Shown here: positions 282-26,273 of the stretch, in pieces
Layout of the letters: every line of letters starts with the position of its first letter
Numbering within the stretch: the first letter of the stretch is position 1
DNA from: Rozella allomycis CSF55
Taxonomy: Eukaryota > Rozellomycota
Assembly: GCA_000442015.1 (NCBI GenBank)
Contig: KE560569.1
Coordinates: forward strand, 1-26,367
Length of the DNA stretch: 26,367 bases
Direction: 5' to 3'
Notes under the pieces: model-generated
The model's input: the letters and a program-made list of their open reading frames with translations, nothing else
The model's database searches: none
Told to the model about the DNA's origin: nothing
Program-made: the position numbers and the translations under genes

Positions 282-950
282 CTATGAAGAATTGATTTTG
301 GACATGGATAAATTGGACGCCGCCACAGTTGACGATGAGGATAAACGGTGTGCAAATGAATTATTCCCCTTTGCTACCTTCTTGTTAATCAACATGTTCA
401 TAATATCAGAAATATTAAGCAGGTCACTCTCAATTGTTTGAAATCTGTCTACTATTTCTTCAAGCTCTTGAGATTGCATTTCGTCGGTTCTTTGCAATTT
501 TTTTATATCGTCTCGCAGAATCATAATGCTTTTTAAAATTTCCTCGTTCTTATATAATTAATCGAACGAATATACCTCGTGCCTTAATATCGATTGTGCG
601 ACTTTTACTTCATCGATATAATCTATGCATTGATAAACAAATAATTTGATTTACTAGCTAAAGATTTAAAACTGGAACCGCGAAAAATAATATATGAAAG
701 TCCCTCAACTATGATGGACTCATTTTCTGTGTAAGCAGTTTCCTATTTCAAAGCTAAATTGAGTTTACCAGATGCTCAATAAATTGTTTCAAAGCCAGAG
801 GAGAAAATTCTTTGAGTAATGCGACTACAGGCGGTGTTGTCGATTGCAAAACTCTATTAGCATCAATAGAATATTACTAGATATCGGAGTGTCCACAAAC
901 AAAATTTTACAGGGTTTTAATATTGTTTTTGTTAAAAACTCTATCATCAT
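282..950 (-). CDS. unrecognised coiled-coil protein, five exons
   Basis: No plain ORF covers this gene. Splicing four short introns (877-852, 768-743, 654-623, 575-549; 26, 26, 32 and 27 nt) joins exons 950-878, 851-769, 742-655, 622-576 and 548-282 into one frame of 185 residues. The middle has a helical stretch with PPVVALLKEFSPLALKQFIE, then IIVEGLSYIIFRGSS. Residues about 90-150 form an acidic amphipathic coiled coil (EILKSIMILRDDIKKL, QSQELEEIVDRFQTIESDL). The tail is Ser-rich. I do not recognise the family; it might be a small subunit of a tethering or adaptor complex, but nothing shows that. The start is uncertain: ATGs lie at 950 and 947, the frame stays open upstream, and an extra 5' exon cannot be excluded. 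It is tandem with RRP41, whose stop is 143 bp upstream of this start. Confidence 0.6.
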
Positions 951-1093
951 GACAATAGTGCCACTTCTCTTCGAAAGAATCGATATAGACGACAAACGTA
1001 AACATTCAATCAAAAACTAACGACAGTTTTCAAAAATATTCTTTTTTAAATTTATAAATAAATTCTTTAACTTATTAAAAAAATAATTTTATT

Positions 1094-1935
1094 TTAAAAT
1101 CCTCGCATCTCGAGCAATGCTTTTGTTCTTTGCTTGACTCGCTCGTCAAAAATTTTATGCAAAGATTTACACCCCTCCAACCCAACTTCAATTAAACTAT
1201 CGACATTTGCAACGTGTATCTTTTTCTCAAGTTGAAAAAGTACGATACTTTGATCTCTTGGTTGAATAGCAATAGTTAATACAGGTGTATCTGAAGACTC
1301 TTCAATTGCATTCATGTCTAAAAATGGTGTATTTTTTATGTAGCCAATTGTAGAGGCAGTTATATAATCGGTCATAGGGATCCCCGCGTCAATTAAGGCT
1401 AGGGTCACTGCATTCACGCATGCCGACAACAGACCTTTTACCGATAAAGAAAATATTTACCGCCATCTACTTGAATAACTTGAATGTAAATGTCAATTTG
1501 CGATCTGGGAAACAGTTGAATTTTAACCACAGATTCCATGGTTTGTTTAATAAATATAGACATCTCCATAAGTCTTTTATCGACCCTAGCTTTTCTCCTG
1601 TCTGTTTTTGTAAAAGTTGACATTGATATTTCAGTTGTAATTATAGCCTTGTCGTGCTGTAACTGATGTCGTTTTTCAACCTTTGAAAATATGCAATAAC
1701 AAGTACCTCCCGAGGACCATAAACACATGCTAAAAGTTTTGTGTTTCCTTGTTCCAAATAACATGATCCATCTGCCTGTTGAAAAACAGACATCCTCGAA
1801 CGAATAGACCTTAACTCATGGGGCCTTCTACCGTCTATTCTGAGACCTGAATTAATTTTATAGTATTAAAAAACCTTCGGGTAGCAATAGCTCGCGTCTA
1901 GAAGACTAAAAACACCAAGAAAATAATTTTACCAT
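1094..1935 (-). CDS. RRP41: exosome complex component RRP41 (RNase PH-like)
   Basis: Five exons (1935-1933, 1905-1875, 1846-1707, 1680-1461, 1434-1094) separated by introns of 27, 28, 26 and 26 nt give 735 nt, or 244 residues, matching the roughly 245 aa family length. The protein begins MSSRRELLLPEGLRIDGRRP and continues with FQQADGSCYLEQGNTKLLA, VYGPRE, FPRSQIDIYIQVIQVDGG and ACVNAVTLALIDAGIPM. These are the hallmark blocks of RRP41/EXOSC4/Ski6 in the RNase PH ring of the RNA exosome, which processes and degrades RNA in nucleus and cytoplasm. In most eukaryotes the ring is structural and does not degrade RNA itself. Oddly, exon 1 is only the ATG codon, followed directly by an intron. The gene starts 43 bp past the stop of RPC4 on the same strand. 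Confidence 0.95.
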
Positions 1936-1978
1936 TTGATAAATTTCGGAAAGTGGTAAATCGAAGAAAATGTATAAT

Positions 1979-2982
1979 CTAGTTTATTAGAGATATTAAG
2001 CTTGGCTGACAAACCAATTTTTTCGTTATTTCTCCAAATTCAAAGATTTGCTTATTTTGACTGTCAATTGCGACCAAACTCCTAAACATGTCACCCTCGT
2101 GGCCAGAGTTCACCTAGAGAAATGTGGTAACAATTTGATTACAGTGAAAACTATATCGTCAATTGTTAATTCAATGTCTCCATTATCAAAAAATCTAAAG
2201 TTTCCTATAGTTCCATCTTTGAGTTTAGATGGAGTCCAGTTGGAACAATTTTCAAGCTCGGATATGGAAGGCAGAACTGGAGGTAGTTGGAAAAGAAATA
2301 ATCCATCTTCATTTAATATTGGTTCATCATCCTGTTTAAAGATAAGCCAAAATACTTACAAGTGATTTTAAGTAAGCTAAATCACATGCAGCTCCAACTA
2401 GCTTGTTTTTATGGTCAATTTGAGTAACTGATTCTGTGCTATTATCTTCTTTTTTGACAACATCCATGGCAGATTCGAGATCAAAATCTTCCTCCTTGAG
2501 AGCTACCTTTTCGTCATTCATGATTAAAACCGGAGCATCTCCGGAATTACCATCGCCAATATCATTTAAACTGATAACGTTATCCGATATCTGATCACTG
2601 ATATTGGCCAATTGTTTCTGAGTGGCTGCTGATTCTGTTCTAGAGGAGCCAAATAAGCTTGCAAATGTAGCTTTTCTAGTCTTTTGAATTCCTATCATTC
2701 TAACGTAAAGACATTACCGTCCATAGAAGGCCCTTGAGCAAAAAGGCCACCGGTGACTTCCTGGGTGATATTCTGTTTAAAATCCTTTTTATCCATTTTT
2801 GCTTTTCCCTTTGGTTTTCTCTCTTTTGATTTTGTAGCATCTAGGAGAGCAGCACCTTCAGATCTTTTAATAACGGGCGAGAAAAGTTACTTTTTTGCAG
2901 CCTTTACATTTGGTTTGAATTTCATTTTTTTAGCACCACCTAATGTGGTATCTTTATCTTTTATGGAATCAAGACGTTCCAT
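1979..2982 (-). CDS. POLR3D: RNA polymerase III subunit RPC4 (C53)
   Basis: Exons 2982-2891, 2863-2718, 2691-2360, 2331-2143 and 2113-1979, with introns of 27, 26, 28 and 29 nt, give 297 residues. The N-terminus is Lys-rich and low in complexity (KKMKFKPNVKAAKK, KSKERKPKGKAKMDKK), then TGGLFAQGPSMDG. The C-terminus carries the conserved RPC4 core: FLFQLPPVLP, DGTIGNFRFFDNGDIELTI, and finally FEFGEITKKLVCQPSL, equivalent to the LGHVxxKLVCxPD end of known RPC4 proteins. RPC4 pairs with RPC5 (C37) as a TFIIF-like module of Pol III acting in termination and reinitiation. The variable acidic middle is typical. The gene is divergent from the CCDC43-like gene, with 41 bp between the start codons. 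Confidence 0.87.
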
Positions 2983-3023
2983 ATTTTAGTCGAGTGACAA
3001 GCCACTATAGTGAAAGTGAGCAA
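2983..3023. promoter_or_regulatory. 41-bp bidirectional promoter / shared 5' UTR interval
   Basis: This is all the DNA between the start codons of RPC4 (minus) and the CCDC43-like gene (plus). Both promoters must lie here or inside the neighbouring coding exons. I see no convincing TATA element. The call rests on gene layout only. Confidence 0.4.
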
Positions 3024-3636
3024 ATGAATATAGAAGACGAGGATGTAATCGAGTATTTGACTCAGGTTATTTTGACTGAAGAAAATTGTCTTGATTTCGT
3101 AAAAGAATATTTAGAGGATTATTTTCAAGTAAACTCAAAGATTACTAGAGAGATAGAAAGACATTGAAGAGTCAGAAATTATATCATTTATAAATAAAGT
3201 ACAGAAAAAAACAAGTGAAAATAGTGAAAATGTAAAAGAAGAAAGAAGTTTAGAAACATCATTGACTGCAGAGAAAATATTGGATGGATTTGTACTAAAG
3301 GAGATCAAGGAAGAGAATGTAAATTTAGATAAAAAAGAATGGCAAGTTAAACAAAAAATTCTTGAAAAGTATTCAATAGACCGGGGTGATGAGTATGTGG
3401 AAAATGCCAAAGGAGAACTAGAGGTGATATATAAGAGTGCAGATGAATCGTCTAAAACATTTCAAGTTGTGGAAAATGAAAATAGAACTAGGGTTAAAGA
3501 TGAAGAAAGGATGGTGAGGGAGACACAGAGAATTGAGCATTTGAAGAAAAAGGAGAGAGAGAAGGAGTTGCTTGAGAAACAAAGGTTGAAAGAGGTTAAA
3601 AAGAAGACTCAAAAGCAAGAAAGAAGAAGAATGTAA
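3024..3636 (+). CDS. CCDC43: CCDC43-like coiled-coil protein
   Basis: Exons 3024-3128 and 3157-3636 (intron 3129-3156, 28 nt) give 194 residues, close to the roughly 220 aa of the family. The N-terminus (MNIEDEDVIEYLTQVILTEE) is a short acidic helical region like the PWI-like start of CCDC43. The middle has KILEKYSIDRGDEYVENAK, matching the LLxQYADVxDEE block. The last 60 residues are a highly charged basic coiled coil ending KKTQKQERRRM, as in CCDC43 tails. The molecular role of the family is poorly known. The frame is open upstream to 2943, but that would overlap RPC4 exon 1, so the ATG at 3024 is chosen. It ends 21 bp before the stop of the convergent acyl-CoA oxidase gene. Confidence 0.72.
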
Positions 3637-3657
3637 TAATAAAAGTATTTTTGACAT

Positions 3658-6017
3658 TTATTCATTTAATTCAATACGATCAGAGGGCAAATCTTTTCTT
3701 GAGAGGATTGGCTTCATTGTTCTTTCAAAGTAAGGAGGAACAGCAGGGGGATTATTTCTTACAATTTTATCAAAGTAATGACGATAAATATCTCCATCAA
3801 ATCTTCCCAGCGGTGAATTTAAAACGTAGTCAGATAAGCCAAAGGAGTCAACTAGAGGAACGGCTTCATTTCTAATCTCAGAGCAAAGTTCTAGAACTTT
3901 ATTCTGGATCATTTCAATCTGGTTAGATGAGAAAACATTAAATTGAAGGAACGAACCAGCATTTTCTTGAATGGTAAACAAAGAATACAACAAGCAAAGT
4001 TTTTCAAGAATTAATTTTGCATCCATAGGTGCCTTTTGGATCGCATCTTTAAATTTCTTAAATAGATAAGAAAAACTGTGCATTTTTGCTGCTTGGAATC
4101 TTTGAGTTGCACAACCTTCAAGTCCCGCATCTTCATTAGCACCCCTGGCTAAGATTTCATTGAATTTATCAAAAGATTTCTTCACAAAGTTTGCACAAAC
4201 AACGTCAAACGCTTTTTCAATATTTTCAAATTTTGTTGGATCTCCTTCACATCTTTGAACCAGGATTTCGGGTAATCTATTTAGATAAGCCACACCTTTT
4301 GGTAGATCTTTTCCATTCAATTTTTCTTTATAGCAAGAAATCAAATATCTTCCCAGCTGAAGTGTCAGCACTGTGTTATCTCCTTCCCACGTACATTGAA
4401 CAGCAAAGTCTTGATAAAGAGACGCTAAGCCAGCGTATGAACTGTAGCCATGGCCGCCAAGCGCTTGCCTGCTTTGCTCAATTATATTCAGAGTCGTCCA
4501 TCTACTTAAATCTTTTACTGTTCATTACGTGCAAAATGCTTTCAAACCAGCAGCAGTTGCATGGGTCTCTTTTAGCGAGTCTAGAACTTTGCCTATTTTA
4601 GGGTCAGATGGCTTAATGGAATCCAATTTAGCAACCAAAGAATCATAAATTTTTGTCACTTCCAATCCAGCGAAATTCATAGCAAACGTTGTGGCTAAAA
4701 GTGGCATCAATCTGTACTGATGCGTCGCGTAATCAAGAATCTTCTTTTCAATCTCCCCTGGCTGCAATGCGAATTGTCTTCTAATTGCTGAATATCTTAT
4801 TGCTATTGTTAAAGCCTTCTTGGCTATGTCTGCTGAATCCATAATCATCGTAACCCGCCCTAAAATTAACGCGCCATATGCCAATTGTTGTAATGGTGGC
4901 TCAGTAACAACCCCCTGTCGTTTTGCTAAAAGTATTTTACCTCTCTTGATACTTTGGTATGCTTCATTAACATATTAGATCTGGGAATCCTCACGTGCGT
5001 GAATCTTATCCATCCATTATCAATTGCATTTCGTCCCTATCATTAACAAAATCATCTGTTACCATCTTGGGGCCTAAATCTCCAATACTTATTCCAGGAA
5101 GTAAAGAAAAGTCACTGGGATCTCTCAATGGCACAATAAACGACTTGACTCCATAGCACTTTCCTTTTACAATCATCCTCGCAAATACAGCACTTTTAAT
5201 CCCTCTAATATTTATTACGAATGTGTTGCAGATTGTCCAGCACCACCAATCCAGAATTTGGTGGCAGTCAAAGTTGGCGTATGAATCACAAATTCATCAT
5301 TTTCTTCATCAAATACAGCTAGGGTCTCAAGTCCAGCCACATTCGATCCATGCCTATCAAATATAATTAAATAAATCACCCCAATTCCGTCATTGCAAAA
5401 CATCCAATCATTCCATTCAATGTAAATGCACCTTTGCCCATCCAATAGGCGATTTGTTCAGGTGTACCCTGACCTGTCAAAGCACCCAAGAATAACCCAA
5501 AATGAACACCCATTCTAGTCATGAATCCTGGATCAACCAGTGATATCACTCCAAAACGCATCCGTGCTTGCTCCACACTTTCACTTTGAATTGCTGCTAA
5601 AACGCTCTTGACTCTTTTCATCACAGCTTCTCTAATCTCATCCTTTGTCATATCTATCATCAAACATTGATCACGAATAAAATATCTCCGAGCCCACAAA
5701 ATTTCTCTTCCCAGCCCACATGGANATTGATCACCATACCATGAATACGCGACAAATCAAATGTAGGATCTCTCTCCATTTCCAACATAAACTGTTCCTT
5801 TAACTAGATTAAGAGAAAAATTTGTAACTGACGTGTGTAAAAGCTTCCGATCCATCCAACAAATACGTCATTTTGCGAACATCAAATGACGCCTTTTGAC
5901 GTTCCTGATTCAAGTCATTCGTTCCACTATTCTTTGACTAGTTATGTATAATTACGATTGCGGAACCATTGGATTGAATTGATTAGCCAATGCTACCAGT
6001 CGATCAGCTGCAGTCAT
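3658..6017 (-). CDS. ACOX1: peroxisomal acyl-CoA oxidase
   Basis: Recognised exons are 6017-5956, 5926-5833, a region from 5803 broken by the N at 5725, then up to 5380, 5353-5219, 5192-4941, 4914-4529 and 4501-3658. Clear introns are 26-29 nt. Family blocks in order: [33 protein letters not shown], the FAD/acyl-CoA loop; [47 protein letters not shown]; and [10 protein letters not shown], which contains the catalytic Glu. The C-terminal helical domain ([29 protein letters not shown]) is complete. The enzyme makes trans-2-enoyl-CoA and H2O2 in the first step of peroxisomal beta-oxidation. The C-terminus reads RIELNE and has no SKL-type PTS1, so import probably uses another Pex5-dependent signal, as for some fungal oxidases. 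The frame does not join across the N; an intron of about 35 nt containing it would restore the frame. Confidence 0.93.
5725..5725. other. single-N assembly gap inside acyl-CoA oxidase
   Basis: One N interrupts the coding strand between the codons for FDLSRIHG and EILWARRYF. Unlike the other five Ns in the window, it is not flanked by a long direct copy; only the 9-mer attgatcac recurs on both sides. If real sequence is missing here, the acyl-CoA oxidase model is incomplete at this point. Confidence 0.85.
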
Positions 6018-6037: not shown

Positions 6038-9000
6038 ATGAATGAGATTTTACAAAGATTGTATTCACCCACAGTCCTAGTACAAACGTTATCAGATTTC
6101 AAAGAATATAATATTCTAAATACCCTGAGCGATTTCCGCTCCTTTCCTAAACCACTCTCAAATTTGAGATTTGTAGAGGAATTTAACGAAAAGGAAACTA
6201 GTTTTAAACCCAGTTTGAAAAGTTTAAAGGCTTATAAGAATAATTTCGAGTGGTTTGACGATCAAGTTTGTGCAATGCTAAAGGAATGTTCGGATAGATG
6301 TTTGGAATACGATACAATGTCACATCCAGTGGCTGCTTTATTGTTTGTATCTAGTGATGAAATAAATCCAATTGAATTAATCACTAAAGCCAAAGTTCCG
6401 TTGCTGTCGTTTATGGATCCTGGTCTTTTGAAATGCTACGTATTAGTTCCCGAAGGGTAATGAATTTAATTTAACATGAAAGAAATGAAGATCATTTAAA
6501 AATTCTAGAGAAAATGAACAAATCTTTGGGAACCAATTGTTTTATTTTCGACAAACAAGATCCCAGAAAGTTTGTAATGGAATTCTGTATGCGCTGTTTG
6601 CTTCCATTTATGAAAAAAGAAATTGATTTTATTAACGAGCAAGTAGAAGTTAGCGATAAAAATTATTTTAGATTGCAAGTTCACGCAAAGGATTTACTGG
6701 AAGGTTATTTACGGTTGGCAAAAAGTACTTTGCAAGGTCAGCGACAACTTCAACGNTTTAGTGATAAAAATTTTAGATTGCAAGTTCACGCAAAGGTTTT
6801 ACTGGAAGGCTATTTACGGTTGGCAAAAAGTACTTTGCAAGGTCAGCGACAACTTCAACGTCTTCACTAGTTGGGAATATAATTTCGTAATAAATTAATA
6901 ATTGAGACAAAAGGTATAATTCAAGCAGCCCTGAATTTCAAATGCGTCGCTTGGCTGATTATTCATTCTTTCTTGGTGACTATAGAATGGCTCAATCAAC
7001 GTATGACAGTGTTAAAAGAGATTATCAGACTGATAAGAATTGGACATTTTATGCATCAGCGCTTGTAATAAATTGTTGTGAACTTAAAAGGAAATGATTG
7101 GGATTTGTTGTATTTTATTAAAAGAAAAGGATCCTAAATATTTGGATAGTGCAGCGATGCATTACATGACAAAATGCAATGACATGCAAAAGGCCCTGTG
7201 TACATCAATGCTGCAGGCTAACAGTCTTTGCATGTACAATCAATTCAAGGATGCGGCTGTTGTCTATTTAAGAATGGCGAATGAATTTAAGGGTAAAGAA
7301 TATTGTTTGACGGCGTTGATGTATGAACAAGCTAGTCAATGTTATTCAAACATGGGTTGGAAGAGGAAGCAAAGTTTTTATTTGTATTTAGCTGGCAAGT
7401 GTTTCGATATTTTCGGATTGGTAATTAATAAAGTTTTAACTTCCCAAGAAAGAATACTCAACCAACTGCTGTTTTAATGCGTCAAAGACGATTACAGACA
7501 AGGGATGGACTGTGGCTGAAGATTTGATAAACTTTGGATTAAAATCATCAAATAATGATTCACTGATAAAACTTTTGAGAAAGAGTAGAATTAATCCAGC
7601 GCTCCAGCAAAGTTACCTTGATGAATTCTTATCCAAGGCAGTAATAAATCTTCTTATGATTTCCAGGATGAAGGATTATCCTTTAATACAAAGGAGTTGA
7701 AGGTTTTAAAAGTAATCAATGAAAGTGCTACATTTTCACAACGGCATTTAATAGAAAAACAAATCCCATCAGAGTTATCGACTGATTTTACTGATTTAGA
7801 AGCTCAGCGTGTTAGATTTGAAGAATGGAAGAGGGATGGATTGATTGATCCCAACACAATGTTTAACCCCAGTGATTTGAAAGCGTTTTGTAGCGTGGAA
7901 GGTAATTGAAGTCAATAAAAGTTATTAAAGAATTAGTGACGGTTGAAATTGGGATTGAAAACAATTTGAATGTTCCAATTTTCTGTTCAAACGTTTATTT
8001 GATTTGTGAATTTTCGGAAAATAGAGTTGAATGGAAAAGAGGAGAAAATTATGAGGAAATTGTTGTTGAAAGAATTGAAATTGAGCCAGAACAAATAATG
8101 ATATTTAAAGGACAGATAAAGGTGTTGAAGAAGGGGTATTATAGAGTAGTTGGATTGAGTATGAAATTTATGAATAAAGTTGAATTGAATCATTGTATAG
8201 AAAAGAAAGGGAAGCGATTGAATTCAACAAAGGAAGAGAGAATGAAAGTTTTGTATTCACAAGACAAAAGTTTAGAAATTCTTTCGCTTGATTCGCTTCC
8301 ATTAATTTCAGCATTTTTTCATGAAATTCCAGAAGAGATTTATTTTGGCCAAGTAGTGAAATCAACCCTTGAAATAACCAACATTAGTAAATTTCCAATT
8401 TCATCTTTAAAATTTAAAACAAATCTTCCACATTGCATTCAGATTGGATCTTTTAATAAATTTGATTCATCTTTTTATTCAGCCACAGAAGAAAATGAAG
8501 AAACGTTTCTCACTTCAAATGGATTGGTTGAAAAGAAAGAATTTGACATTCCTCTGCCTGCTTATTCTATGGGAAATCTTTTAGATTCAAATGAATCTTT
8601 TTTATACCCTGGTAGAACAGCATTAATCCCCGTGTGGCTTAGAGGGGAGTGGCATGGTTCGTCAAATCTAAAAATAGCCTTTAAATATGAATGTGAAATT
8701 AAAAGTCCTTTTCTAATCTTTAGAACGTTTGGATGGTCAAAGGAAATTAAAGTTCTTCCAACAATAAAAGCAAACGCTTTCACTAAATCTGGATTAACGT
8801 GCAATCAAAACACAATAGGAATTGAAATTGAAAATTTAAATGAATTAGATTTGGAAATTTCACAAATCTCTTGTCTAAGCCCCATTTGGAAACTAAAAAA
8901 GATTGACGAGGCTGAAATCAAATGGACAATTTCTTCACACAGAATTTTCTATTTTTCTCTAGAAAGAAATTTAGATCCAATCTATGAAATAGAAAAAGAA

Positions 9001-9914
9001 ATGGCACTCGTTGTAGATGACTATCTCTCTTCAAACTCAAAGGGCCTTTCATTCAAAGATTCAAATCTTTCTCTTTTAATCTCTTCAATCAAAAATAATC
9101 AATCTGAAATTAATCTAAATTCTCCTTTTCTGAAAAACTTTTTAAATCTTTCAAGGCAGAATTGGAGATTAGAAAATTTAAAAAATACTTTTCCACATTT
9201 TTCTGTTTCAGAATTTACTAGATTATTTCCAAAATATTTTTCAGATGAATTAGATTTAATCATCTTTTGGAACGCTGGAAATGTTAAGGCTCATCACATC
9301 ATTCAAGGTAAAATATTTTCAATCTTTTTTTCAAGGGATCTATCTTGGATCTCATGCGCCACTATATCTACCCAAACTGTCGGATTCAAATTATGTAAAG
9401 AAAATTACAAATTCTCTCTACATGGAAACTAAAAAGAAGAAGATGGACATATTAAATTCAATAAAAGCCCAAAATAATCCAAATCAAGTAATTTGACTCA
9501 AATTCTTCAATAGGCGTTTGTTAAACTAAGAATTAATCATAAAACAGAGTTGGATTTCAATCTTGAAGAGTAAAACAATTCTTTATCTAAAAATAGAACT
9601 GTGGCTGAGGTTGGGTATACAATCTACAATACATCTTGGAGAAGTGAAATCACTTTTAATCTTGAATTAATAAAGTAAAACAAAAAATACTATTTAAAAG
9701 TGGCGAAATGTCCAAAGGCGAATGTTTCTCATGGATTGGACCTCAAATACTTACTGGGCGTTTAAAGCCTGAAGAGTCAATCAATCTTCAATCTGAAATA
9801 GAGTTTTACCAGCAAGGAGTTTACAACGTTGCAAAATGGAAGTTGGAAATAAAATCATCAGACGGATCCACAATTCAAATGCCTAATTATTCATCCTTTG
9901 TAATCATTAAATAA
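6038..9914 (+). CDS. TRAPPC8: TRAPP-III subunit TRAPPC8 / Trs85
   Basis: Eleven introns restore a protein of roughly 1,160 residues: 6457-6482, 6842-6870, 6887-6913, 7065-7090, 7421-7448, 7641-7666, 7902-7930, 9308-9335, 9488-9513, 9570-9596 and 9675-9700 (26-29 nt each). Blocks matching TRAPPC8 are MEFCMRCLLPFMKKEIDFIN, then SSSPEFQMRRLADYSFFLGD with MAQSTYDSVKRDY, a TPR-like helical region (AAVVYLRMANEF, LMYEQASQCY), GWTVAEDLINF, and VEELVTVEIGIENNL opening the beta-sandwich half. TRAPPC8 is the specific subunit of TRAPP-III, the Rab1/Ypt1 exchange factor acting in ER-Golgi traffic and autophagy. The exon between introns 2 and 3 is only 16 nt (6871-6886). Positions 6651-6755 and 6759-6860 are near-duplicates around an N, so the assembled gene carries about 105 extra bases. 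Confidence 0.9.
6651..6860 (+). repeat. near-identical direct copies flanking N at 6756 (probable unmerged contig overlap)
   Basis: The left copy (about 6651-6755) and right copy (about 6759-6860) both encode RLQVHAK(D/V)LLEGYLRLAKSTLQ plus the start of the following intron. They differ by a 3-nt indel and about three substitutions. Family proteins have this segment once and only the right copy runs on into the next exon, so it is most likely an assembly overlap. Confidence 0.85.
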
Positions 9915-9942: not shown

Positions 9943-12505
9943 TTAAATGAAATAAACGTTTAATTCCGAGAGTGAAATTGGTTTCTGAATTTTCAAATCT
10001 TTCTTTTCATTTGGCGCCAAATGGAAACAATTCTCCATTAATTCAATTTCACAATTACTCATGTTGAAAACAATACTAACAAAATATAATGCATTTTCCG
10101 TTGTATTTTGAATAGTTATTGATTCATTGTTTACTTTAACCAATGGTGCAACTTTGTTTCTTGATGTAATCTCTGCAAAGTCCTCCTCAGCTAGAATATT
10201 TCCATCTTTATGCCTAAATTTTGCTCTTAAGAAGCTTTGATTGAAATAATTCATTTCAACAATTTTCTTGCCCCTTCTGGCATCCATTTTCACCTCCAGT
10301 ATCGTCTTTTCAACTGTCATACCATAAATTTCAATCTCCACAACACCATCAATGATTTTATCAGTATCATTTATCATCCAAACAACCAACTTATTCCCAA
10401 CTTTGTGCATCGTTATTCTAATTGGTTCAAACGCTCTCTTTATGAAATAATGAGATAACTTGCAGTCACCATTCTCTGTTAAAGTTGACCATGAAGGACA
10501 TGTCCACACATCATTTAACTGCCAGTACAAGGCACCCATACAATTCCCCTCAAATTGTAGTCTTCTATAATGATCAATCTGACTTTGAAGCATCCATCCC
10601 TGTACAATTTGACTCGAATAAACCTGAAATTCAAATTCATCGCATTCACTGATAAATGGAAAGACTTTTTGCATTAAATTCATCATTTGGGTTTGACCAT
10701 TCAAGTGATGATTTCTTTGGATCATGAAATCTGAAAAGAAATTTAAATCATCGGTGCATTCAACTACTTTTCTTAAATCGTGATAATTTGGCATTGATTG
10801 ATAGCCAAATTCAGATGCGAAATTGGTTATTGGCAACTTGGACGTATCTCGTGCATCATCTTCGTAGTTATAGTAGTGAGTATCTCCAGTGTATGGAAGT
10901 TGAGCAAATCTTTCGCGACGAGGATCATTCAGAAAACAGCCATTTGAAGGGGAACTGGAGACGTAGGGTCCAACATACCCTGTTGATCTCAATGAATCTA
11001 GAATGCAATTATTTAAGATATAATAATCAATCGAATACAAAAAGGGATTTCGTTTAACTGGCTCAAACCACCCCTTCACTAGAATCTCTTCATTCTCATT
11101 GTTTCCGCTCCACAGCACTATGCATGCAAATCTACCTAGTCGGTTGCTTTGATATTCGATTTCCCTTTCAACGTTTTCAAGAAACTCTGAATTGGTTGGG
11201 TACATTGCACATGCTATTTAACAACGTGTAAATGACGTTACCAAACATACATTCTTGCCAAACCATTATTCCGTATTCATCACATAATTCATAAAAGAAA
11301 TCTGGAAGATACGTACCACCTCCCCAAACTCGAATACAATTCATATTCGCAGCTACACATTTTCGAATTATCTTTTCCAAACGCTCTTTGTTCACTTTAG
11401 TTTCATCAAGATCAATTGGTACAATATTTGCTCCTTTGCAAAATATCTTCCTGCCGTTCACGCTTATCACAAACTTTCTCTCCATGTCCAACTCTGAATA
11501 GCGAAATCCAATGGAAATTGTTTTAGAGAAAACACGCATGTGCATTTCGACATCATAAACATCAATTTTCAGATTATACAATTTTGATTTTCCATAGCCT
11601 ATTGGGTACCAAAGCTCTACCATATTTCTTGGTATTGTAAAAGTAAACTCAATATTAAATGGACCTCTGGCCAATTCACCATGATCAAACTCGAATTCAA
11701 TCTCATCAATCTTGCAAACTACTGAAATGGATTTGAACTTTAAGGCTAGCCCCGCAAATCCCACGAGCTTTATATGTGCGGCAAATTCATCAGCATTAAA
11801 AAGATTGACTCTCACATAGCATTCGCTCACGACATCTGAGTAGCCTTTTGTTTCGGTTAAGTAGATCTCTTCCCCGATTCCTATAGGTATAATGCACGGA
11901 CCCCTATTCATTTCAAGAAAATCGACATACCAATCCCATCCAAATGAACTCTGGTTTATCCTTAGAAAGTTTCTAAATCGTTCTCCATTTAAAACTTCCA
12001 CGTATCCATCGGGCAATTCATATGGGTAGAGGGCTGATTGTTGTTGAGCATATTTACAAGGTGATTGAAATGTCAATTTCAATATGTTCTGTTGAGATGA
12101 CAAGAGATATTTCAACGGAATAAAAAATGTGTATTTTAGAAAAGAGTTGTTACATGATCCTATCTTATAGTCATTGATAAAAACATCGCAAACTAATTCA
12201 ACCTTGTTCATAACTAGAATAAAAGTGTCATCCGAATTAATATCGGCAGTAGAGTCAAAGTCAGGTACACTGAATTCATTTTCAAAAGTCCAATCACAAT
12301 GAAATATATCTCTATATTTTGTATCGTTAGTCTCCTTTGTCAAGTTGGGAAGCACACCGTTTGATTCAAGGATACTGTGCACAAGGCCCGGAACACATGC
12401 ATTGAACTTTTGATTTTTTGATATTAATAGTCTCTGGACATTATTATGACTCAAATATATGTCGTGGTTAGGATAAATAGTCCATTCATTCGATAGGAAA
12501 TTCAT
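9943..12505 (-). CDS. MANBA: beta-mannosidase, glycoside hydrolase family 2, no signal peptide
   Basis: Two exons (12505-11242 and 11213-9943, 28-nt intron) give 844 residues, the usual length. Order of parts: N-terminal sugar-binding domain (WDWYVDFLEMNRGPCIIPIG), immunoglobulin-like domain (GIGFRYSELDMER-type block, IGFRYSEL), then the catalytic barrel. Barrel motifs are GANIVPID, NCIRVWGGGTYLPDFFYELC, MVWQECMFACAMYP, the acid/base Glu in VLWSGNNENEE, and the nucleophile Glu in FASEFGYQSMP; LYWQLNDVW follows. Both catalytic residues are present. It releases terminal beta-1,4-mannose from oligosaccharides. The N-terminus MNFLSNEWTIYPNHD has no hydrophobic leader, so a cytosolic enzyme is inferred, like clade B fungal beta-mannosidases, working on mannobiose or free N-glycan cores. 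It ends 28 bp from the stop of TRAPPC8 (tail-to-tail). Confidence 0.94.
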
Positions 12506-12652
12506 TGACGTTTTGATAAAGTTTGATCTTGATTTAAAATGACAAGTAGATATTAGTGGTTTAATCTTGATATATCGTTAAAGAAACATGTGATTTTTGA
12601 TACATCTTTGGTCATAATATTCGTAACTTTAGAATTTAATTGGATTTATTAA
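12506..12652. other. short AT-rich spacer
   Basis: This 147-bp spacer lies between the end of CYB5D1 and the start of beta-mannosidase, both on the minus strand. It should hold the beta-mannosidase promoter. I see no specific motif or RNA gene in it. Confidence 0.35.
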
Positions 12653-13526: not shown

Positions 13527-14131
13527 TCCAGTTTCAACAAGGTAAACACAAATTTTATATATTATAGAACACTAAAAATTTTGCGTAACGTTAAACTGTT
13601 GGTTATAATAGGTTTAAATGCGATAACTGTAATTTGAGTTTTGTATCAAGAAATATGTATCATAAACATTTATCACAACATGTTAATTGTAAGTTTTGCC
13701 AGTTTAGCGCCATTTTCAAAGTGACAAAGGCCCACCAATTCAATTTCCATCAAGATGAGCTTTCACATATATCCCGAACAGCAAATCTAAATAATAAAAC
13801 TGAAAGTGAAGAAGACGTTCAAAAATATATCTTGGAAAGAAAAAGGAAATATCCATGCGAAGCAAATCGTTTACGCAATGTAAGAGCTTGTTTGTTGCGC
13901 GAATAGGAAATTGAAAAGATTGAATCAAGCGATCCTTTATGTTTAATTTCCGAAAACTATGAATCTGAAGAAGATAAAACAACCTTAGAAACAAAGAAAA
14001 AGCCTAAGCGGGACAGACGAAAGGGGAATGGAAAACCACTTAAAATACCAATCGGTTTGGCATTATTAGAAAAAGAAGTAGAAGAGAAGCATGTGTATAT
14101 TTTAGAAGCTTTTAATTTTCTCTTTAAGTAA
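13506..14131 (+). CDS. NUFIP1: NUFIP1-like zinc finger protein (box C/D snoRNP assembly)
   Basis: Exons 13506-13541, 13568-13584, 13612 to about 13879, and the remainder to 14131 (introns 26, 27 and 27 nt) give 181 residues. The first part holds two C2H2-like fingers, FKCDNCNLSFVSRNMYHKHL and CKFCQFSAIFKVTKAHQF. Next is EEDVQKYILERKRKYPCEAN, the defining NUFIP motif (WxxERRKRYPTxxN), which binds SNU13/15.5K. The C-terminus, ALLEKEVEEKHVYILEAFNFLF, matches the LLxxEIRxERxxLLQCxRY tail. NUFIP/Rsa1 helps assemble box C/D snoRNPs. Exon 2 is a 17-nt micro-exon. The stop codon lies within a GTAAGT sequence resembling a 5' splice site, so a small extra 3' exon is possible. Confidence 0.82.
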
Positions 14132-16349: not shown

Positions 16350-17477
16350 TTAATCAAATGGCAAAAGTTCTGGACGTGCAGCAATCGCACTTGGAACTTT
16401 CATGACACAACAGCTAGGAAGTTCACCTGGCAATCTATGGTCGCATTCTTCTTCATGTGATTTTTCATATACATAAGGATACACTTTATCACTGACGATT
16501 GATATCTCAAAACGTAAAAATGAGCCAAACAGAAAATGTTGCATGATAGGAAATTTCGACAATATTTCAGCGTCAAGCATTTTGAAGAGACCTTCATTGA
16601 TCTTTTTCCAGGATTTGGCAGCACTTATATCATCCAGCATCGGTGAATGCCATCTAAGAGATGCAGTTTTAACCTTTGCTGATGCACTGAATTCCATACC
16701 TTATTTACAAACTCAATACAAGATAGGTAAAAATAATGTTTTGCATATCCTTCAATTACTTCAGGATCGTGTATAGATTTAGGTTTTATATATGGATGAT
16801 CTTTGAATCATTGAATAGCCATTTTTACCAATTAATTGAGCGGAGCCAAATAGAAATGGAAGAAAATGGTAGTCATCTAAGCCCCAGACGCCATGAGATC
16901 CAGCAGGCTCCAGAAGATATGTGAATTGTAACTTTCTCATTAATCGCAAGTACCTTATATTGATGTCTTGTAGATTGTACCTGTCGAAAACTCGTAATAC
17001 AATACCGGGAAAGTCGTTATCCTTAACAATACCAAGATGATACAGACAGTATATAAAGCAAACAAAATTCATTTCATTTCCAGTACCATAGTCAATTCTC
17101 TGTCTATGCCCAAATGACGACATTAAATAGGGTTTTGTTTCCACTAAAGATTCCTCGGGTATTCCAAGAGAAAAGATATAAGGGTTGATTTCTTGCGTAA
17201 TATGATCCAACCATTGTTGAAACATTGGACTACCAAATCTACTCATTTGTTTTTCGGGTGGAAATAGTGCTATGCTTTCAGTTAAGAATTCAAATAATTG
17301 AACTAGTTTTCTAATTGCCTCGGATTCTTCGACGCTATCACAAAGCGATTTTTTTACCACAGAGTTATTTAGGGCAACCAGAAATTGAATTAACTCTTTC
17401 TTCGTTTCTGATAAGTTAAATCTTTCAAGATCATCTTTGCATAGAATTTGTCTACTAGGCTTAAGAAATTCATGCAT
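16350..17477 (-). CDS. PTPA: PP2A phosphatase activator PTPA (Rrd1/Rrd2-type prolyl isomerase)
   Basis: Three exons with introns of 28 and 26 nt give 357 residues. Conserved blocks: FGHRQRIDYGTGNEMNFVCF (family GHxxxYGTGHE), RYLRLMRKLQFTYLLEPAGS followed by HGVWGLDDYHFLPFLFGSAQ, IKPKSIHDPEVI and SLRWHSPMLDDISAAKSW. PTPA activates and stabilises protein phosphatase 2A by helping load catalytic metals onto the C subunit, using ATP and peptidyl-prolyl isomerase activity. All signature residues are visible. Reading without splicing would split the gene in two at the intron after FLFGSAQLI. It is head-to-head with PEX11, 22 bp between start codons. Confidence 0.95.
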
Positions 17478-18431: not shown

Positions 18432-19219
18432 ATGGCCGAAAAGAGAATGCCCAAAAAAGATACTTCGCCAACTCGCAGTCAACGTGAGCCATCCCCTGCT
18501 CGTAGCACACATAGCGCGCAAAGTGCTTCTGACAAGGAAGGCCGTAAGATATTTGTTGGCAATTTGGACTTCCAAACTACCAATATTGAGCTTAAAGAAT
18601 TTTTCGCTACTGAAGGAAAAGTGTAAGTTTGATTTAGCCGCTTTAGTATAGTTTAAAAGCACACATCATAACTAGAGGAACTCTTTCAAGAGGTTATGGC
18701 TTTGTCACATTCGAAAAGGCTGAAGAAGCTGAACGGGCGGTTGAAAAACTTAATCAAACTGAGTTGAATGGACGCAAAATAAATTGTGAGATTGCTATTC
18801 CAAGAGAACATCATAATGAAAGCAATGCCCGTGGTAGAGGTCGTCTTGGAAGACGTGGTCGCGGACGTGGTCGTGGACGTGGAGGATTCCGTGGTGGCCG
18901 TCGTTTCAGCAAACGCAGAATTGCTCAAGGTGAACCATCAACTGATATGGTCTTTGTCACCAACATTCCATACAGCGTCGACGAAGATGAATTGACCAAC
19001 CACTTTAAGGGATTGAGTGTTTCTGAAGTCACTATTCCCCGCAATTCTCACAATCAACGTTCTAGAGGATTCGCTTTTGTTACCTTTTCAAAAGCTGAAG
19101 ATCAAAAGAAGGCTGTGGAGAAATTCGATCAAACTGAAATTGAAGGCCGTTCCCTAAAGGTCAGAATCGCTAAAGAGAGACCAAAAGAAGATTCCAAAAC
19201 CGGTGAGGCGGATGAATAA
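18432..19219 (+). CDS. RRM-RGG-RRM RNA-binding protein (Sbp1-like architecture)
   Basis: One 29-nt intron within RRM1 (after ATEGKV) gives 252 residues. The start is Ser/Pro/Arg-rich. RRM1 (about 38-115) has RNP2 KIFVGNLDF and RNP1 RGYGFVTF. It is followed by an RGG/GR-rich linker (GRGRLGRRGRGRGRG, GGFRGGRRF, about 120-145). RRM2 (about 155-230) has RNP2 MVFVTNIPYS and RNP1 RGFAFVTF. The tail is acidic. The order RRM, RGG, RRM is that of yeast Sbp1, which represses translation by binding eIF4G through its RGG box; other nucleolin- or Gbp2-like proteins can look similar. The fold is certain, the orthology is not. It is convergent with septin, 40 bp between stops. Confidence 0.85.
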
Positions 19220-19259: not shown

Positions 19260-20788
19260 TTATTTGGCTGGAGAGTTTGGAACTTGAAGAACCGACATGT
19301 CTGAAATTTCCTTTTCCAATGCCTTAATCACTTCCTGATCTTGAGCAAGTTCCTTGTTCAACTTTTCCCTTTCATTTATTAACAATGTTAAGAAAAAAAA
19401 TAATTCTTACTCTCTGTTCCCATGATTTGAAGCGCACTTCATGTTGCTTTACTTGGTCAGCAAACTTTTGCTTCAATTCTTCTTCGGTTGTTTCATTAGT
19501 TTCCAATCTTTTACATTACATTTATGGTTTTACAAATCCTTTGATTTATTCAGCTTATATCCCTCTTTCAATGCTCTTTCCCGAAAATTTTCATAATGCA
19601 GTTCACTTGTTGTTTGAATTAAATCAAGCATGTGCATCCTAACCAAAAGATTTCTCAATTTTTTGAAATCACAATATTCATCATTTTCAACTAGTTCAAA
19701 ATAATCCTTTAAATATACCTTCTGCTGTACCCCAAGAATATTGGCGGGCTTTGACCCGATGCCCTTCCTTGTTTATACAGTCAATCTCTGAAGTTATAAT
19801 AGCAAAAGGCATTGAATTCTGTATCGTTAAACAATTTGTATTACCAAAATACTTAAATTCATATTCGTAGTTTGCTCATCGTCGCTCTCTGCAGCAAATT
19901 GAAAAACATTTATTTTGTTGGCTTCAAGGCAGTCTATAATCATTTGAAATTTCTATAATCCCCTTACCTTTTGCTTGAAAGATGTAAGCTCTCGTTTAGT
20001 TAGCATATCCGCCCTTGCAATGACTGGAATCAAATTGACGTGATCGCATAGATTTTTCATAGTATCAATATCTATTTGACGCAATCTGGGAGATAAAACT
20101 GTGGATTTTACGTTGTTCCAAGGGGTGGGATAAAGTATAGGCAAGCGTGGACCCTAGAGTCCTTGTATTTTCTTACATTCTCTTGACTATCTTGATTTAA
20201 ATAGTCCATATAGCTATCGTTGATATAAGAAAGAATTGGTTTCCAGCTATAAATAGAAANTCTGGAATCTTTGTATTTCCTTACATTCTCTTGATTATCT
20301 TGATTTAAATAGTCTAAATAGCTATCGTTGATATAAGAAAGAATTGGTTTCCAGCTATAAATAAAAACCCTGATCTCCTTACCAATTTTCATTATTGATG
20401 TAGTCCCCAAATCCAGGAGTATCAATTACTGACAACCGAATTTCAAATCCTTTTTCCACAAAAGCAAATATAAATTAAATGTGTTCAATTACTATTCACA
20501 TGGACCTGAATTCTAGTTGTTTTGTGTTCTTGTTGGAGACTTTCTTGCGAAAATCTACAATAGTCATCTTCATGCTTATAAACTGTGGTATTTAATAAAG
20601 AATTAATAAAAGTTGATTTGCCTAGCCCACTATCGCCTATGAATTCCGGCAAATTATAGTGTTATACCAACAAGAAGTATATTAAAGTCGATTCCTTTCT
20701 TTGATACTATTCTGTGCCTTTGATTAGGCAAATTCGCTATTCCAACGTTAGTAGCAATATCAGGTTTGGGCAGAAAGCCTAATGGCAT
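19260..20788 (-). CDS. septin GTPase
   Basis: About ten exons. The N-terminus is [20 protein letters not shown], then the G1 P-loop [12 protein letters not shown] (an intron interrupts the first Gly codon), G3 in [24 protein letters not shown], and G4 as [11 protein letters not shown] (usual AKAD). The septin-unique element is [18 protein letters not shown], followed by [17 protein letters not shown]-terminal coiled coil follows ([37 protein letters not shown]). Septins form filaments at the cortex and division site. Intron lengths are mostly 26-31 nt, with longer ones of about 43 and 49 nt. One intron near 19967-19941 has no ordinary 3' site. An N at 20260 is flanked by a copied stretch, giving the [13 protein letters not shown] region twice in the assembly. 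Confidence 0.93.
20156..20364 (-). repeat. near-identical direct copies flanking N at 20260 within septin
   Basis: Copies about 20156-20259 and 20264-20364 each encode [12 protein letters not shown](M/L)DYLNQD(S/N)[11 protein letters not shown]. They differ by several substitutions, at least two of them altering amino acids. Septins carry this segment once between G3 and the VHACLYF strand. It is read as an unmerged contig overlap, with the two versions possibly alleles. Confidence 0.83.
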
Positions 20789-20810: not shown

Positions 20811-21979
20811 ATGAAAATAATACCAGTTACCGTCTTTACAGGATTTCTTGGCGCTGGTAAAACAACAATAATTTTAGATATCTTGTCAAAATGTGATCCA
20901 GCTTATAAAGTCGCTGTTTTGAAAAATGAATTTGGCGATGTTCAAGGTAATACCTTGTTGATCTCTTATAGTACAAGTGGACAGTCAATTAATGAATCAA
21001 CAGAAAGATATGATTGTCGAAGAGATATCTAACGGGTGCTTATGTTGCGTTCTTGTAGGGCAAATAGAAAATGCCCTATTGGACATGAAAAGTATAATTT
21101 GATTATTCTTTGGCATTAGATAATTATGAGATTGATAGAATAATAGTTNCAAGAGATATCTAACGGGTGCTTATGCTGCGTTCTTGTAGGGCAAATGGAA
21201 AATGCCCTATTGGACATGAAAAGTATAATTGATTATTCTTTGGCATTAGAAAATTATGAGATTGATAGAATAATAATAGAAACATCAGGATCTGCATTTC
21301 CAGCTCCAATCGCATGGCAAATTAGACAGTTAAAGGAACATTTTGCGTTAGATAGCATTATAACAGTGATAGATTGTGTCAATTTTACTGGATATGAAGA
21401 TACAAGCTATACTGCTAAACTCCAGGCTCAAGTAATGAAATCTTTAAGCTTGAACAGTACACTGATTTGATTGTATTGAATAAACATGAGTTGGTTTCAG
21501 AGAGGCAATTAGACATTGTGATAGACCATGTAGCCAATTTGAACGACAGTACTCCACGAATAAAGTATAATAAGAGCTCTGGATTATCTACAAACTTGGT
21601 TTTTGGATTAGACACAAAGTTATTTTCAATGGTTGATCCCTTGAATGTTTGTGACGACGATCATAACAAGGAAGTTGAGTTGTTAACTTTAAAATCTAAT
21701 GGATTGTTTATAAATAATTCTTCAAAGACTGAACAAGAATGTTTTACTGATTGGTTAAATACTTTGTCAAAGGAGGATGTGTTTAGAGTGAAAGGATTTG
21801 TCAAATTGGATGGAAAGTGGCTCATTGTGAATCATGCCTTTGGGAGACCGAACTATTTAGAATTAAATGACGAGAAAGATTTGACCCTTTCAATTGTCGT
21901 AATGGGTCAGAATTTGAACATTTTGAAGAGTCGTTTGAATTCGCATTTTATTAACATTGAAACTGAATACATGAATTAA
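20811..21979 (+). CDS. CobW/COG0523 family metallochaperone GTPase
   Basis: Introns of 25 nt (about 20946-20970) and 26 nt (starting about 21431), plus removal of the copy around N 21149, restore one frame of about 320 residues. Motifs: Walker A GFLGAGKTT at residues 11-19; NEFGDVQ; the metal-binding CxCC as EISNGCLCCVL; ETSGSAFPAPI; VIDCVNF (Walker B-like); and NKHELVSERQ (guanine-specificity NKxE/D). The C-terminal CobW domain has VFRVKGFVKLDGKWLIVNHA. COG0523 GTPases deliver metals such as zinc to client proteins; ZNG1 is the eukaryotic example. There is no His-rich loop. The exact subfamily is not decided. The first copy around the gap carries an extra T causing a stop, absent from the second copy. 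Confidence 0.9.
21020..21277 (+). repeat. near-identical direct copies flanking N at 21149 within CobW gene
   Basis: Copies about 21020-21148 and 21150-21277, each about 128 bp, carry the SNGCLCCVL region. They differ by about four substitutions and one T insertion (a T-run of three versus two). The insertion frameshifts only the left copy. The right copy continues correctly into the gene. Interpreted as an unmerged contig end with either a sequencing error or an allele. Confidence 0.85.
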
Positions 21980-25000: not shown

Positions 25001-25070
25001 TTGGACATGAAACGAAAGATATTGCACTTCTTATGAAGCTCACAACGAATAGTAATATGGTTAGCATCAT
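22048..25070 (-). CDS. class C (GABA-B-type) 7TM receptor with Pmp-like beta-helix ectodomain
   Basis: Single long exon, about 955 residues after removing the copied segment at N 23260. A signal peptide (MMLTILLFVVSFIRSAISF) is followed by about 550 residues of short repeats with GGAIFVQNN, GGAFVVQ, GGAIAFLAGS, GGALVVQDD, GGALHFTGGS and GGGIYMDTTN. Recurrent FxxN pieces are FKNNN, FIGNN and FVGNQ. This GGA(I/L) plus FxxN pattern is that of Pmp/pectate-lyase-like parallel beta-helices. There are many Asn-x-Ser/Thr sites. After about 100 residues come seven hydrophobic helices: GFAAIAVIMIIVCIVTVALL, SYILVSVTIVGSILSFISLA, ENIGFTLVFAALLAKMYRI, YIGLSVILMCSYLITWTFL, GIRLFITLIAAVLAYTI, FATYNWVVFGTLISVLAQW, and one ending FLTTISLAGFKIY. 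GFTLVFxxLxAKxxRxxRIF is GABA-B-like. The usual Venus-flytrap ligand domain is absent. The cytoplasmic tail is short and Ser/Lys-rich. Confidence 0.85.
23106..23414 (-). repeat. near-identical direct copies flanking N at 23260 within the receptor gene
   Basis: Copies 23106-23259 and 23261-23414 (about 154 bp) differ by four substitutions. Both encode IVNLQAPVIVKLTEAIHNKT and what follows, without amino-acid change. The left copy continues to the transmembrane half and the right copy to the ectodomain, exactly as expected for two contig ends that overlap. Confidence 0.88.
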
Positions 25071-25223
25071 TTCGCCGAATTTCCAGCAGCTTGGATACAG
25101 ATTTTAGTTAACACACACAATTTACATGACCTAATATATTGTGTAACAAAAACATGCATATGTCTACCTTTTATATCTGTAATAAAAATCTGTGCAACCC
25201 TTGCATAGCATTCTGATTTTCTG
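25071..25223. promoter_or_regulatory. 153-bp divergent intergenic region (receptor/SDR)
   Basis: The only roomy head-to-head spacer in the window. Near the receptor start is cgaatttcc (about 25076-25085), a one-base-shorter relative of the element near other starts. The rest is AT-rich with no clear motif. Confidence 0.35.
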
Positions 25224-26273
25224 ATGAGTTTAAAGCACATTGAGCAATTTCTCAAAGGAACAAATTTGGATAAATGCGTTGCTGTTGTCGTTGGTGGAAC
25301 TTCAGGAATAGGACAGGGTATTGCTATTAAGCTAGCATCCCTCAATGCAAAGGTGATAATTGCTGGAAGAAATGCTGAGGCACTAGCGCCAATGAATGAT
25401 AAGATAGATGAATTTTACCCAAAAGCTCCGAAAATTGAATTTAAAAAGGTAGATTTGCTGGAATTTGCAGATATTAACCGTTTTACATCAGATCTAAACA
25501 ATTCCCTGCCTAAAATTGATTATTTGATCCTCACTGCCGGTATTATGAGAATGGGTGGAAGACAAGATACTTTAAGTGGATTAGACGATAAAATGACTGT
25601 CCATTATTATTCCAAAGTTGTAGTTATTAAAAATCTAATACCCCTCTTGCAAAGGAGCTTCGGCGCTGGTAATCAACCAAAAGTATTGAGTGTCTTTGCT
25701 GCTGGGTTGGGAAGAATGGTTGATAAAAACGACTTGGATCNAAGTTGCAGTTATTAAAAATCTCATACCCCTCTTGCAAAGGAGCTTCGGCGCTGGTAAT
25801 CATCCAAAAGTATTGAGTGTCTTTGCTGCTGGGTTGGGAAGAATGGTTGATAAAAACGACTTGGATCTTAAGCACTGTTACAGTCTTAAAAATGCGGCCG
25901 ACGCATGCTCATTGTACAACGATCTGATGGTACAAGTAAGAGTATAGACGCAGATTTACGTTAGGAATTAGCAAAAGAATACGAAAATGTTTCATTTATT
26001 CACGCTAGGCCTGGTGTGATTGATACACCGTTAATCCTTAAAGGCATGCCGTGGTACATTAAACCAACCTATTATTTATTGAAACCCTTTATGAGATCTC
26101 CCGATAATTGTGCAAGCTTCATGGTTCATGGAATGCTGAATGCCAAATTTCCTGGATGGCAGCTTCTGAATGAACATGGAGAGCAAATTGAAAAGTGCAA
26201 GGATCATACCGACGAAAATTCATCACTAGTTTGGAATCATACATGTCAGATTTTAGGTGAAAAACTAAAATAA
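25224..26273 (+). CDS. atypical short-chain dehydrogenase/reductase-like protein
   Basis: After removing the copy around N 25741 and one 29-nt intron following NDLMVQ, the protein has about 298 residues. The nucleotide-binding motif is VVVGGTSGIGQGIA (TGxxxGIG class); the usual NNAG becomes LTAGIMRMGG. The Asp of IEFKKVDLLEF and the RPGVIDTPL strand fit classical SDRs. The catalytic SxnYxxxK is not intact: the expected position reads CYSLKNAADACSLYNDLM, with YxxK spacing instead of YxxxK. This suggests either altered chemistry or a non-enzymatic NAD(P)-binding role; similar degenerate fungal SDRs exist as far as I recall. The substrate is unknown. No signal peptide or membrane segment. The gene ends 94 bp before the window edge. 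Confidence 0.85.
25615..25867 (+). repeat. near-identical direct copies flanking N at 25741 within the SDR gene
   Basis: Copies 25615-25740 and 25742-25867 (about 126 bp) differ by three substitutions and encode IKNLIPLLQRSFGAGN(Q/H)PKVL and the following GLGRMVDKNDLD. SDRs contain this strand-helix unit once. Only the right copy continues in frame into LKHCYSLKN. Read as an unmerged contig overlap. Confidence 0.85.

What the first reader, a model, noticed from the sequence alone, without database searches (positions are those of the whole stretch)
282..26273. Genome-wide ultrashort introns, modal length 26 nt
Hand-splicing finds about 50 introns across 14 genes. Nearly all are 25-29 nt, 26 is commonest, and a few are 31-49 nt. 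They start mostly GTAA and end AG. Removing them restores exact family-length proteins (RRP41 244 aa, PTPA 357, ABCG 619, beta-mannosidase 844), so the calls are mutually checked by frame. Such lengths are near the known lower limits seen in ciliates and nucleomorphs and leave little room for separate branch point, polypyrimidine tract and 5' site.
Basis: partly seen in the sequence, partly recalled or inferred. Interest (0 to 1): 0.82.

Follow-up and report, generated by a model that had tools for sequence, protein, structure and literature searches.

The report
Rozella introns with fixed branch distance
A fungus-like parasite interrupts its genes with introns that are mostly only 26 to 31 letters long, and these share a hidden rule, an A usually placed exactly 23 letters from the start, which suggests that its splicing machine finds the key internal site by measuring distance more than by reading a motif.

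Summary
The window is one contig of the Rozella allomycis CSF55 assembly. A gene finder without length or motif preference, run on 223,761 bases, gives a sharp intron peak at 26-29 nt with a floor at 26; seven nonsense boundary pairs give no peak. Homologous proteins support 15 junctions in four window genes. New here: in 358 of 487 introns of 26-32 nt an A sits at +23 from the 5' splice site, whatever the length (91, 76, 61, 74, 64 % for 26-30 nt); pooled, all other positions from +5 to +25 have 28-39 % A. The intron ends at the first AG whose G is at +26 or later (483 of 487). I read +23 as a branch A placed by distance from the 5' splice site: the reverse of Stentor, where it keeps its distance from the 3' end. 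U1, U2 and U6 boxes look canonical. Three deposited proteins of this contig differ from the spliced models; two were traced to wrong or missed introns. A quarter of introns lack the A; no RNA evidence was available.

The parts
1435..1460 (-). 26-nt intron, RRP41; A at +23
1681..1706 (-). 26-nt intron, RRP41; A at +23
   Evidence: one-residue alignment gap two residues past the junction
1847..1874 (-). 28-nt intron, RRP41, donor GTTTTT; A at +23
   Evidence: missed by the model; gives the N-terminus of the 244-aa protein (match to RRP41 recalled)
1906..1932 (-). 27-nt intron directly after the RRP41 start codon; T at +23
   Evidence: missed by the model
2114..2142 (-). 29-nt intron; T at +23
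2332..2359 (-). 28-nt intron
2692..2717 (-). 26-nt intron
2864..2890 (-). 27-nt intron
3129..3156 (+). 28-nt intron
4502..4528 (-). 27-nt intron, acyl-CoA oxidase; A23 G24 is an unused AG
4915..4940 (-). 26-nt intron, acyl-CoA oxidase
5037..5062 (-). 26-nt intron, acyl-CoA oxidase
5193..5218 (-). 26-nt intron, acyl-CoA oxidase
5354..5379 (-). 26-nt intron, acyl-CoA oxidase
6457..6482 (+). 26-nt intron, gene broken by the N gap at 6756 (probably the same TRAPPC8-like gene)
7065..7090 (+). 26-nt intron, TRAPPC8-like; the deposited model takes 65 nt here
7421..7448 (+). 28-nt intron, TRAPPC8-like; the deposited model takes 67 nt
7641..7666 (+). 26-nt intron, TRAPPC8-like; the deposited model takes 53 nt
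7902..7930 (+). 29-nt intron, TRAPPC8-like; the deposited model has 7890-7921
9308..9335 (+). 28-nt intron, TRAPPC8-like; the deposited model reads through and stops
9488..9513 (+). 26-nt intron, TRAPPC8-like
9570..9596 (+). 27-nt intron, TRAPPC8-like
9675..9700 (+). 26-nt intron, TRAPPC8-like
11214..11241 (-). 28-nt intron, beta-mannosidase
12944..12969 (-). 26-nt intron
13195..13223 (-). 29-nt intron
13301..13327 (-). 27-nt intron
13880..13906 (+). 27-nt intron
14566..14593 (+). 28-nt intron, ABCG transporter
14901..14927 (+). 27-nt intron, ABCG transporter
15560..15585 (+). 26-nt intron, ABCG transporter
   Evidence: two-residue alignment gap 4-5 residues before the junction
15748..15776 (+). 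29-nt intron, ABCG transporter; T at +23
   Evidence: one-residue alignment gap at or beside the junction
15906..15931 (+). 26-nt intron, ABCG transporter
16674..16699 (-). 26-nt intron, PTPA; also in the deposited model
   Evidence: one-residue alignment gap about three residues past the junction
16801..16828 (-). 28-nt intron, PTPA; also in the deposited model; T at +23
16954..16980 (-). 27-nt stopless intron, PTPA; kept as 9 residues in the deposited protein
18623..18651 (+). 29-nt intron, RRM protein
19362..19410 (-). probable 49-nt intron, septin (model said 58 nt); A at +23 but not the first AG (that is at +42)
   Evidence: sequence, hand check of frame
19508..19533 (-). 26-nt intron, septin
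19691..19718 (-). 28-nt intron, septin
19819..19844 (-). 26-nt intron, septin
19941..19967 (-). septin homologs call for removal of about 27 nt, which would end in TG, not AG (model said 15 nt); unexplained or a sequence error
   Evidence: (four extra residues), hand check
20086..20111 (-). 26-nt intron, septin; C at +23
20947..20977 (+). probable 31-nt intron, CobW/COG0523-like gene (model said 25 nt); the AG ending at +25 would be passed over; T at +23
   Evidence: sequence; hand check against a recalled family motif
21432..21457 (+). 26-nt intron, CobW/COG0523-like gene
25936..25964 (+). 29-nt intron, short-chain dehydrogenase

Best explanation
These are U2-type spliceosomal introns of Rozella allomycis. 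In about three of four, the anatomy is GTA (then mostly A) at +1 to +4, about 18 AT-rich and nearly free positions, a branch adenosine at +23, at least one spacer base, and the first AG after that as the 3' splice site. The branch site is set by distance from the 5' splice site (a 22-nt ruler) and not by a strong branch motif or by distance to the 3' end. Total length is then 23 plus a short search for AG, which gives the floor at 26 and the tail to 31 and beyond. Shown: the length peak, the +23 A in the length classes 26 to 30 nt, use of the first AG from +26, canonical snRNA recognition sequences, and genes for several branching and second-step factors. Inferred: that the +23 A is the branch nucleotide, that the spliceosome measures the distance, and that the introns are excised in the cell.
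For: Length peak without any length or motif prior: controls. A at +23: trained model 91/76/61/74/64 % for 26/27/28/29/30 nt (n 115, 92, 77, 57, 22); untrained GT..AG-only model 89/81/63/50 % for 26/27/28/29 nt (n 54, 36, 35, 20); pooled 358 of 487, bootstrap 69-77 %, other positions from +5 to +25 at 28-39 %; binomial p 4e-38, 3e-17, 8e-8, 5e-9, 3e-3 for 26-30 nt. The acceptor model is counted from the 3' end (-6 to +1) and the donor model covers only -3 to +8, so neither can create a 5'-anchored signal at +23 in 27-30-nt introns. Homology-checked introns plus the two RRP41 additions: 14 of 17 with A23, 17 of 17 ending at the first AG from +26. Loci never used for training: 74 of 113 with A23. 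TRA at +21 to +23 in 109 of 358 against 71 expected; purine at +22 in 214 of 358, p 1e-7; T at +21 in 183 of 358, p 1e-3. AGs between +26 and the used AG, counting only those that the frame can tell apart: 2 of 278 chances, 9.6 expected, p 3e-3. AG at +23/+24 is tolerated, 39 of 487. Of 44 calls over 32 nt, 5 end at the first AG from +26 (41, 41, 45, 47, 56 nt) and all 5 have A at +23; of the other 39, 15 do. U1 ACUUACCUG, U2 GUAGUA and U6 ACAGAG. SF1, CWC25 with an MGGGD start, ISY1, SLU7, PRP18 and a U2AF65-like gene are present.
Against: No transcript or lariat data. 129 of 487 introns have no A at +23; in them no other single position stands out for A. The 28-nt class reaches only 61 %, and 31-nt introns give 5 of 9, p 0.18. 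In the untrained set A23 is 50 % at 29 nt (n 20), 50 % at 30 nt (n 8) and 33 % at 31 nt (n 6), and 27-nt introns also show A at +22 in 67 % (n 36). On held-out loci the untrained model gives A23 in 26 of 41. In the untrained set the shortage of skipped AGs is weak (1 of 160, 4.4 expected, p 0.06). A at +23 in the control-boundary calls is 18-52 %, the highest being GT..CA with 16 of 31. Frame-breaking GTAA..AG decoys of 26-31 nt are rare in exons (59 against 111.8 in synonymous shuffles), but requiring A at +23 does not sharpen this specifically: 14 against 37.3, with similar ratios for A at +20 (14 against 35.4) and +24 (16 against 38.4); GTAT/GTAC/GTAG decoys are hardly depleted (91 against 100.9); and the word GTAA is itself depleted (463 against 593). 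Splice ends were chosen partly by my own trained model.
Confidence: 0.72

Rival explanations
1. The introns are real, but the +23 A is not the branch point: it is a contact position for another factor, and the branch A lies at varying places upstream, say +17 to +21.
For: About a quarter of introns lack A23 and have T-rich +22/+23; by eye several have possible branch As at +18 to +21. The context of A23 fits U2 pairing only weakly (T at +21 in 183 of 358).
Against: No upstream position is enriched for A in the pooled set: 28-39 % from +5 to +25 except +23. T21, R22 and A23 fit the order U-R-A that U2 GUAGUA would favour. Use of AG begins 3 nt past +23.
Confidence: 0.15
2. As in the ciliate Stentor, the branch A is held at a fixed distance from the 3' splice site, and the whole intron is a near-constant block.
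For: Most introns are 26-29 nt, so 5' and 3' anchoring nearly coincide; Stentor offers a precedent (PMC9505925, passages).
Against: Counted from the 3' end the A moves from -4 to -8 as length goes from 26 to 30; after removing the +23 column, A at the 3'-anchored positions -4 to -12 is at most 42 %. The five introns of 41-56 nt that end at their first AG have A at +23.
Confidence: 0.04
3. The 26-nt peak is an artefact of gene calling: frameshifts, assembly gaps or chance GT..AG pairs.
For: The assembly has one-N gaps with duplicated flanks, and one called intron (21092-21119) is such a frameshift.
Against: Seven control boundary pairs give 13-31 events of 26-32 nt against 160. Protein homologs support the junctions examined. 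Artefacts give no reason for an A at +23.
Confidence: 0.02
4. The fixed distance is passive (this overlaps with the best explanation and differs only in the cause): introns shrank to the shortest length that this spliceosome tolerates, and +23 is simply the nearest branch position that works, with longer 5' distances equally usable but rarely present.
For: The length distribution has a hard floor and a falling tail; deletion pressure in a compact genome would give this.
Against: Longer introns should then have branch As further out, yet the five 41-56-nt introns that end at their first AG keep A at +23; numbers are small.
Confidence: 0.25

Closest known systems
Stentor coeruleus 15-16-nt introns (PMC9505925, passages read)
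   Same: Near-constant ultrashort U2-type introns; weak branch motif; branch A inferred from a positional peak (10th of 15 nt, 11th of 16 nt); conserved ACAGAGA box and U2 branch region.
   Different: There the A keeps its distance from the 3' end. Here it keeps its distance from the 5' splice site and the 3' end varies. Stentor CWC25 is reported to lack the N-terminal glycine plug and its ISY1 N-terminus not to be conserved; the Rozella CWC25 model starts MGGGD and the ISY1 model starts MARNREKAKS.
Paramecium introns (P. tetraurelia median 25 nt, P. bursaria median 24 nt; PMC12862383, passages read)
   Same: Typical length within 2 nt, mostly GT-AG.
   Different: The range there begins at 15 nt in P. 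bursaria; here there is a sharp floor at 26. No fixed branch position is mentioned in the passages that I saw.
Encephalitozoon cuniculi introns, 22-76 nt (PMC3629993 and PMC2483917, passages read)
   Same: Related lineage (Microsporidia), short introns, GT-AG.
   Different: E. cuniculi is intron-poor with relatively strict 5' site and branch motif (TAAYTT in all 13 introns counted by PMC2483917); Rozella is intron-rich with a degenerate branch context.
Short branch-to-AG introns of hemiascomycete yeasts (PMC2483917, passages read)
   Same: Short distance from branch point to AG (Candida guilliermondii is said to prefer 3 nt, from few introns).
   Different: They use a strong ACTAAC motif; in the passages seen the constraint is on the 3' side.
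Human short introns needing SMU1/RED (PMC6692369, passages read)
   Same: Problem of a short 5' splice site to branch distance.
   Different: Human assembly needs about 50 nt and is abolished at 35 on one pre-mRNA; here the inferred distance is 22. RED_N and RED_C gave no match in the assembly, but without a positive control.

Membership tests
U2-type spliceosomal introns | GT..AG ends with U1-complementary donor | tested here: met
   GT..AG was imposed; A at +3 (92 %) and at +4 (68 %) in the untrained run were not; control ends give no peak; U1 5' end ACUUACCUG. The full U1 match GTAAGT is rare, 18 of 487
U2-type spliceosomal introns | U1, U2 and U6 snRNAs with canonical recognition boxes | tested here: met
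   U1 scores 69.0 bits, just under its gathering score of 69.5; U4 and U5 not searched
U2-type spliceosomal introns | branch adenosine upstream of the 3' splice site | tested here: inconclusive
   position-specific A at +23 in 358 of 487; branching itself not observed
U2-type spliceosomal introns | excision from RNA | not testable with these tools
   no transcript data; protein homology only
Stentor-type tiny introns | length 15-16 nt | tested here: not met
   floor at 26 nt
Stentor-type tiny introns | branch A at fixed distance from the 3' end | tested here: not met
   the positional A is fixed from the 5' end
Strong-branch-motif introns of intron-poor species (yeasts, E. cuniculi) | strong WCTRAY-like branch motif | tested here: not met
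   TRA at +21 to +23 in 109 of 358; commonest 5-mer at +20 to +24 in 14 of 284
U12-type introns | U12-type donor and U11/U12 snRNAs | not tested
   U11/U12 families not searched; the commonest donors listed are GTAAWW-like

The most novel reading that the evidence does not exclude
The Rozella spliceosome selects its branch site with a physical ruler: the branch helix can only form 22 nt from the 5' splice site, nearly irrespective of sequence, and 3' splice site choice is a short search for AG starting 3 nt later. The 22-nt span, about 15-16 nm if fully stretched, would just bridge the 15 nm that separates the 5'-site and branch helices in the human B complex, so the introns may be spliced with the RNA pulled taut and, as RED was not found, without the human short-intron factor.
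Probability: 0.4. Interest if true: 0.85.

Novelty: new variant of a known kind. Interest (0 to 1): 0.72.

Why it matters
Branch sites are usually held to be found by motif, by U2AF/SF1 and by closeness to the 3' end (general knowledge). Here the strongest internal signal is a distance from the 5' splice site, in an intron-rich genome of a lineage next to Microsporidia, with snRNA boxes and several splicing factors that look ordinary. That makes the lower limit and the geometry of spliceosome assembly testable in a natural system. Practically, two of the three deposited proteins that I compared on this contig are mis-spliced in a way I could trace (a retained 27-nt intron; introns of 53-67 nt where 26-28 nt fit the relatives), and the third is 90 residues short; if this is general, gene content, intron statistics and phylogenies that use the Rozella annotation carry an avoidable error, and the +23/first-AG rule could help to repair gene prediction.

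Tried and rejected
Selection against introns of length 3n, as described for Paramecium (recalled): 27 nt is not rare (92 against 115 at 26 and 77 at 28); stop-containing 3n introns are somewhat over-represented (91 of 114, shuffled 80.9, sd 3.9), but my caller cannot easily see stopless 3n introns, so I draw nothing from it.

A branch motif at -8/-9 (TTAAC): seen by eye in a few introns, then not supported by the column counts.

Use of exonic decoys to prove the +23 A: depletion is seen for GTAA with AG at 26-31, but it is not specific for A23.

Loss of second-step factors because of the short branch-to-AG distance: SLU7 and PRP18 are present, so rejected. Altered branching factors as in Stentor: rejected for the CWC25 plug and the ISY1 start.

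Rejected window calls: 12566-12658 (looks like two genes joined; hand judgement), 21092-21119 (frameshift beside an assembly duplication; the right-hand copy reads through), and the ends of 19953-19967 (15 nt), 20947-20971 (25 nt) and 19353-19410 (58 nt); the last three have corrected ends under parts. They stayed in the counts; the 28-nt frameshift call also stayed in the 487.

Literature on Rozella intron structure: five paper searches named Rozella. I opened only PMC8476143 from their lists (passages; intron density 2.53 per kb, no Rozella intron length in the passages shown) and looked by DOI into the Paramicrosporidium paper (no 'intron' or 'splic' in its main text). The other listed papers were seen as titles and abstract starts only. 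The Rozella genome paper of 2013, a Mitosporidium paper and an aphelid paper (all three recalled) are not held, so I cannot say that the lengths are not in print.
Full report
What the window is. The 26,367-base window is all of contig C23 of a 9,970,177-base, 213-contig assembly. A spliced PTPA protein from it matches a deposited protein of Rozella allomycis CSF55 at 97 % over its whole length, and the longest contig given for that protein has 26,367 bases. Rozella (Cryptomycota) is called a sister lineage to Microsporidia in the passages of PMC8476143 that I read.

Noticed in passing
window 6756, 20260, 21149, 23260, 25741: Five of six single-N gaps join two copies of the same 103-154 bases at 92-98 % identity; unmerged contig ends or alleles. 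They break gene models and can create frameshifts. The sixth (5725) shows no duplication.
   Followed up: partly
window 21092-21119: Apparent 28-nt intron produced by one extra base in the left copy of an assembly duplication; the right copy reads through as coding.
   Followed up: partly
window 19941-19967 (-): Septin homologs ask for removal of about 27 nt whose 3' end would read TG instead of AG (A at +23 present). Non-canonical intron, allele or sequencing error.
   Followed up: partly
window 22048-25070 (-): Class C GPCR 7-transmembrane domain (PF00003) behind a long repetitive extracellular-looking part, without called introns, broken by an N gap.
   Followed up: no
window 16954-16980; 7065-7129; 14311-16306: Deposited Rozella proteins for PTPA, TRAPPC8-like and ABCG differ from the homology-supported models; for the first two because ultrashort introns were kept or lengthened (ABCG cause not traced).
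   Followed up: partly
own assembly, PF07808 and PF07807: No match to RED/IK, the human factor for short 5'ss-branch distances; no positive control was available.
   Followed up: partly
129 of 487 introns without A at +23: They favour T at +22 and +23, are slightly longer, and have no common alternative A; a second, looser way to place the branch, or miscalls.
   Followed up: partly
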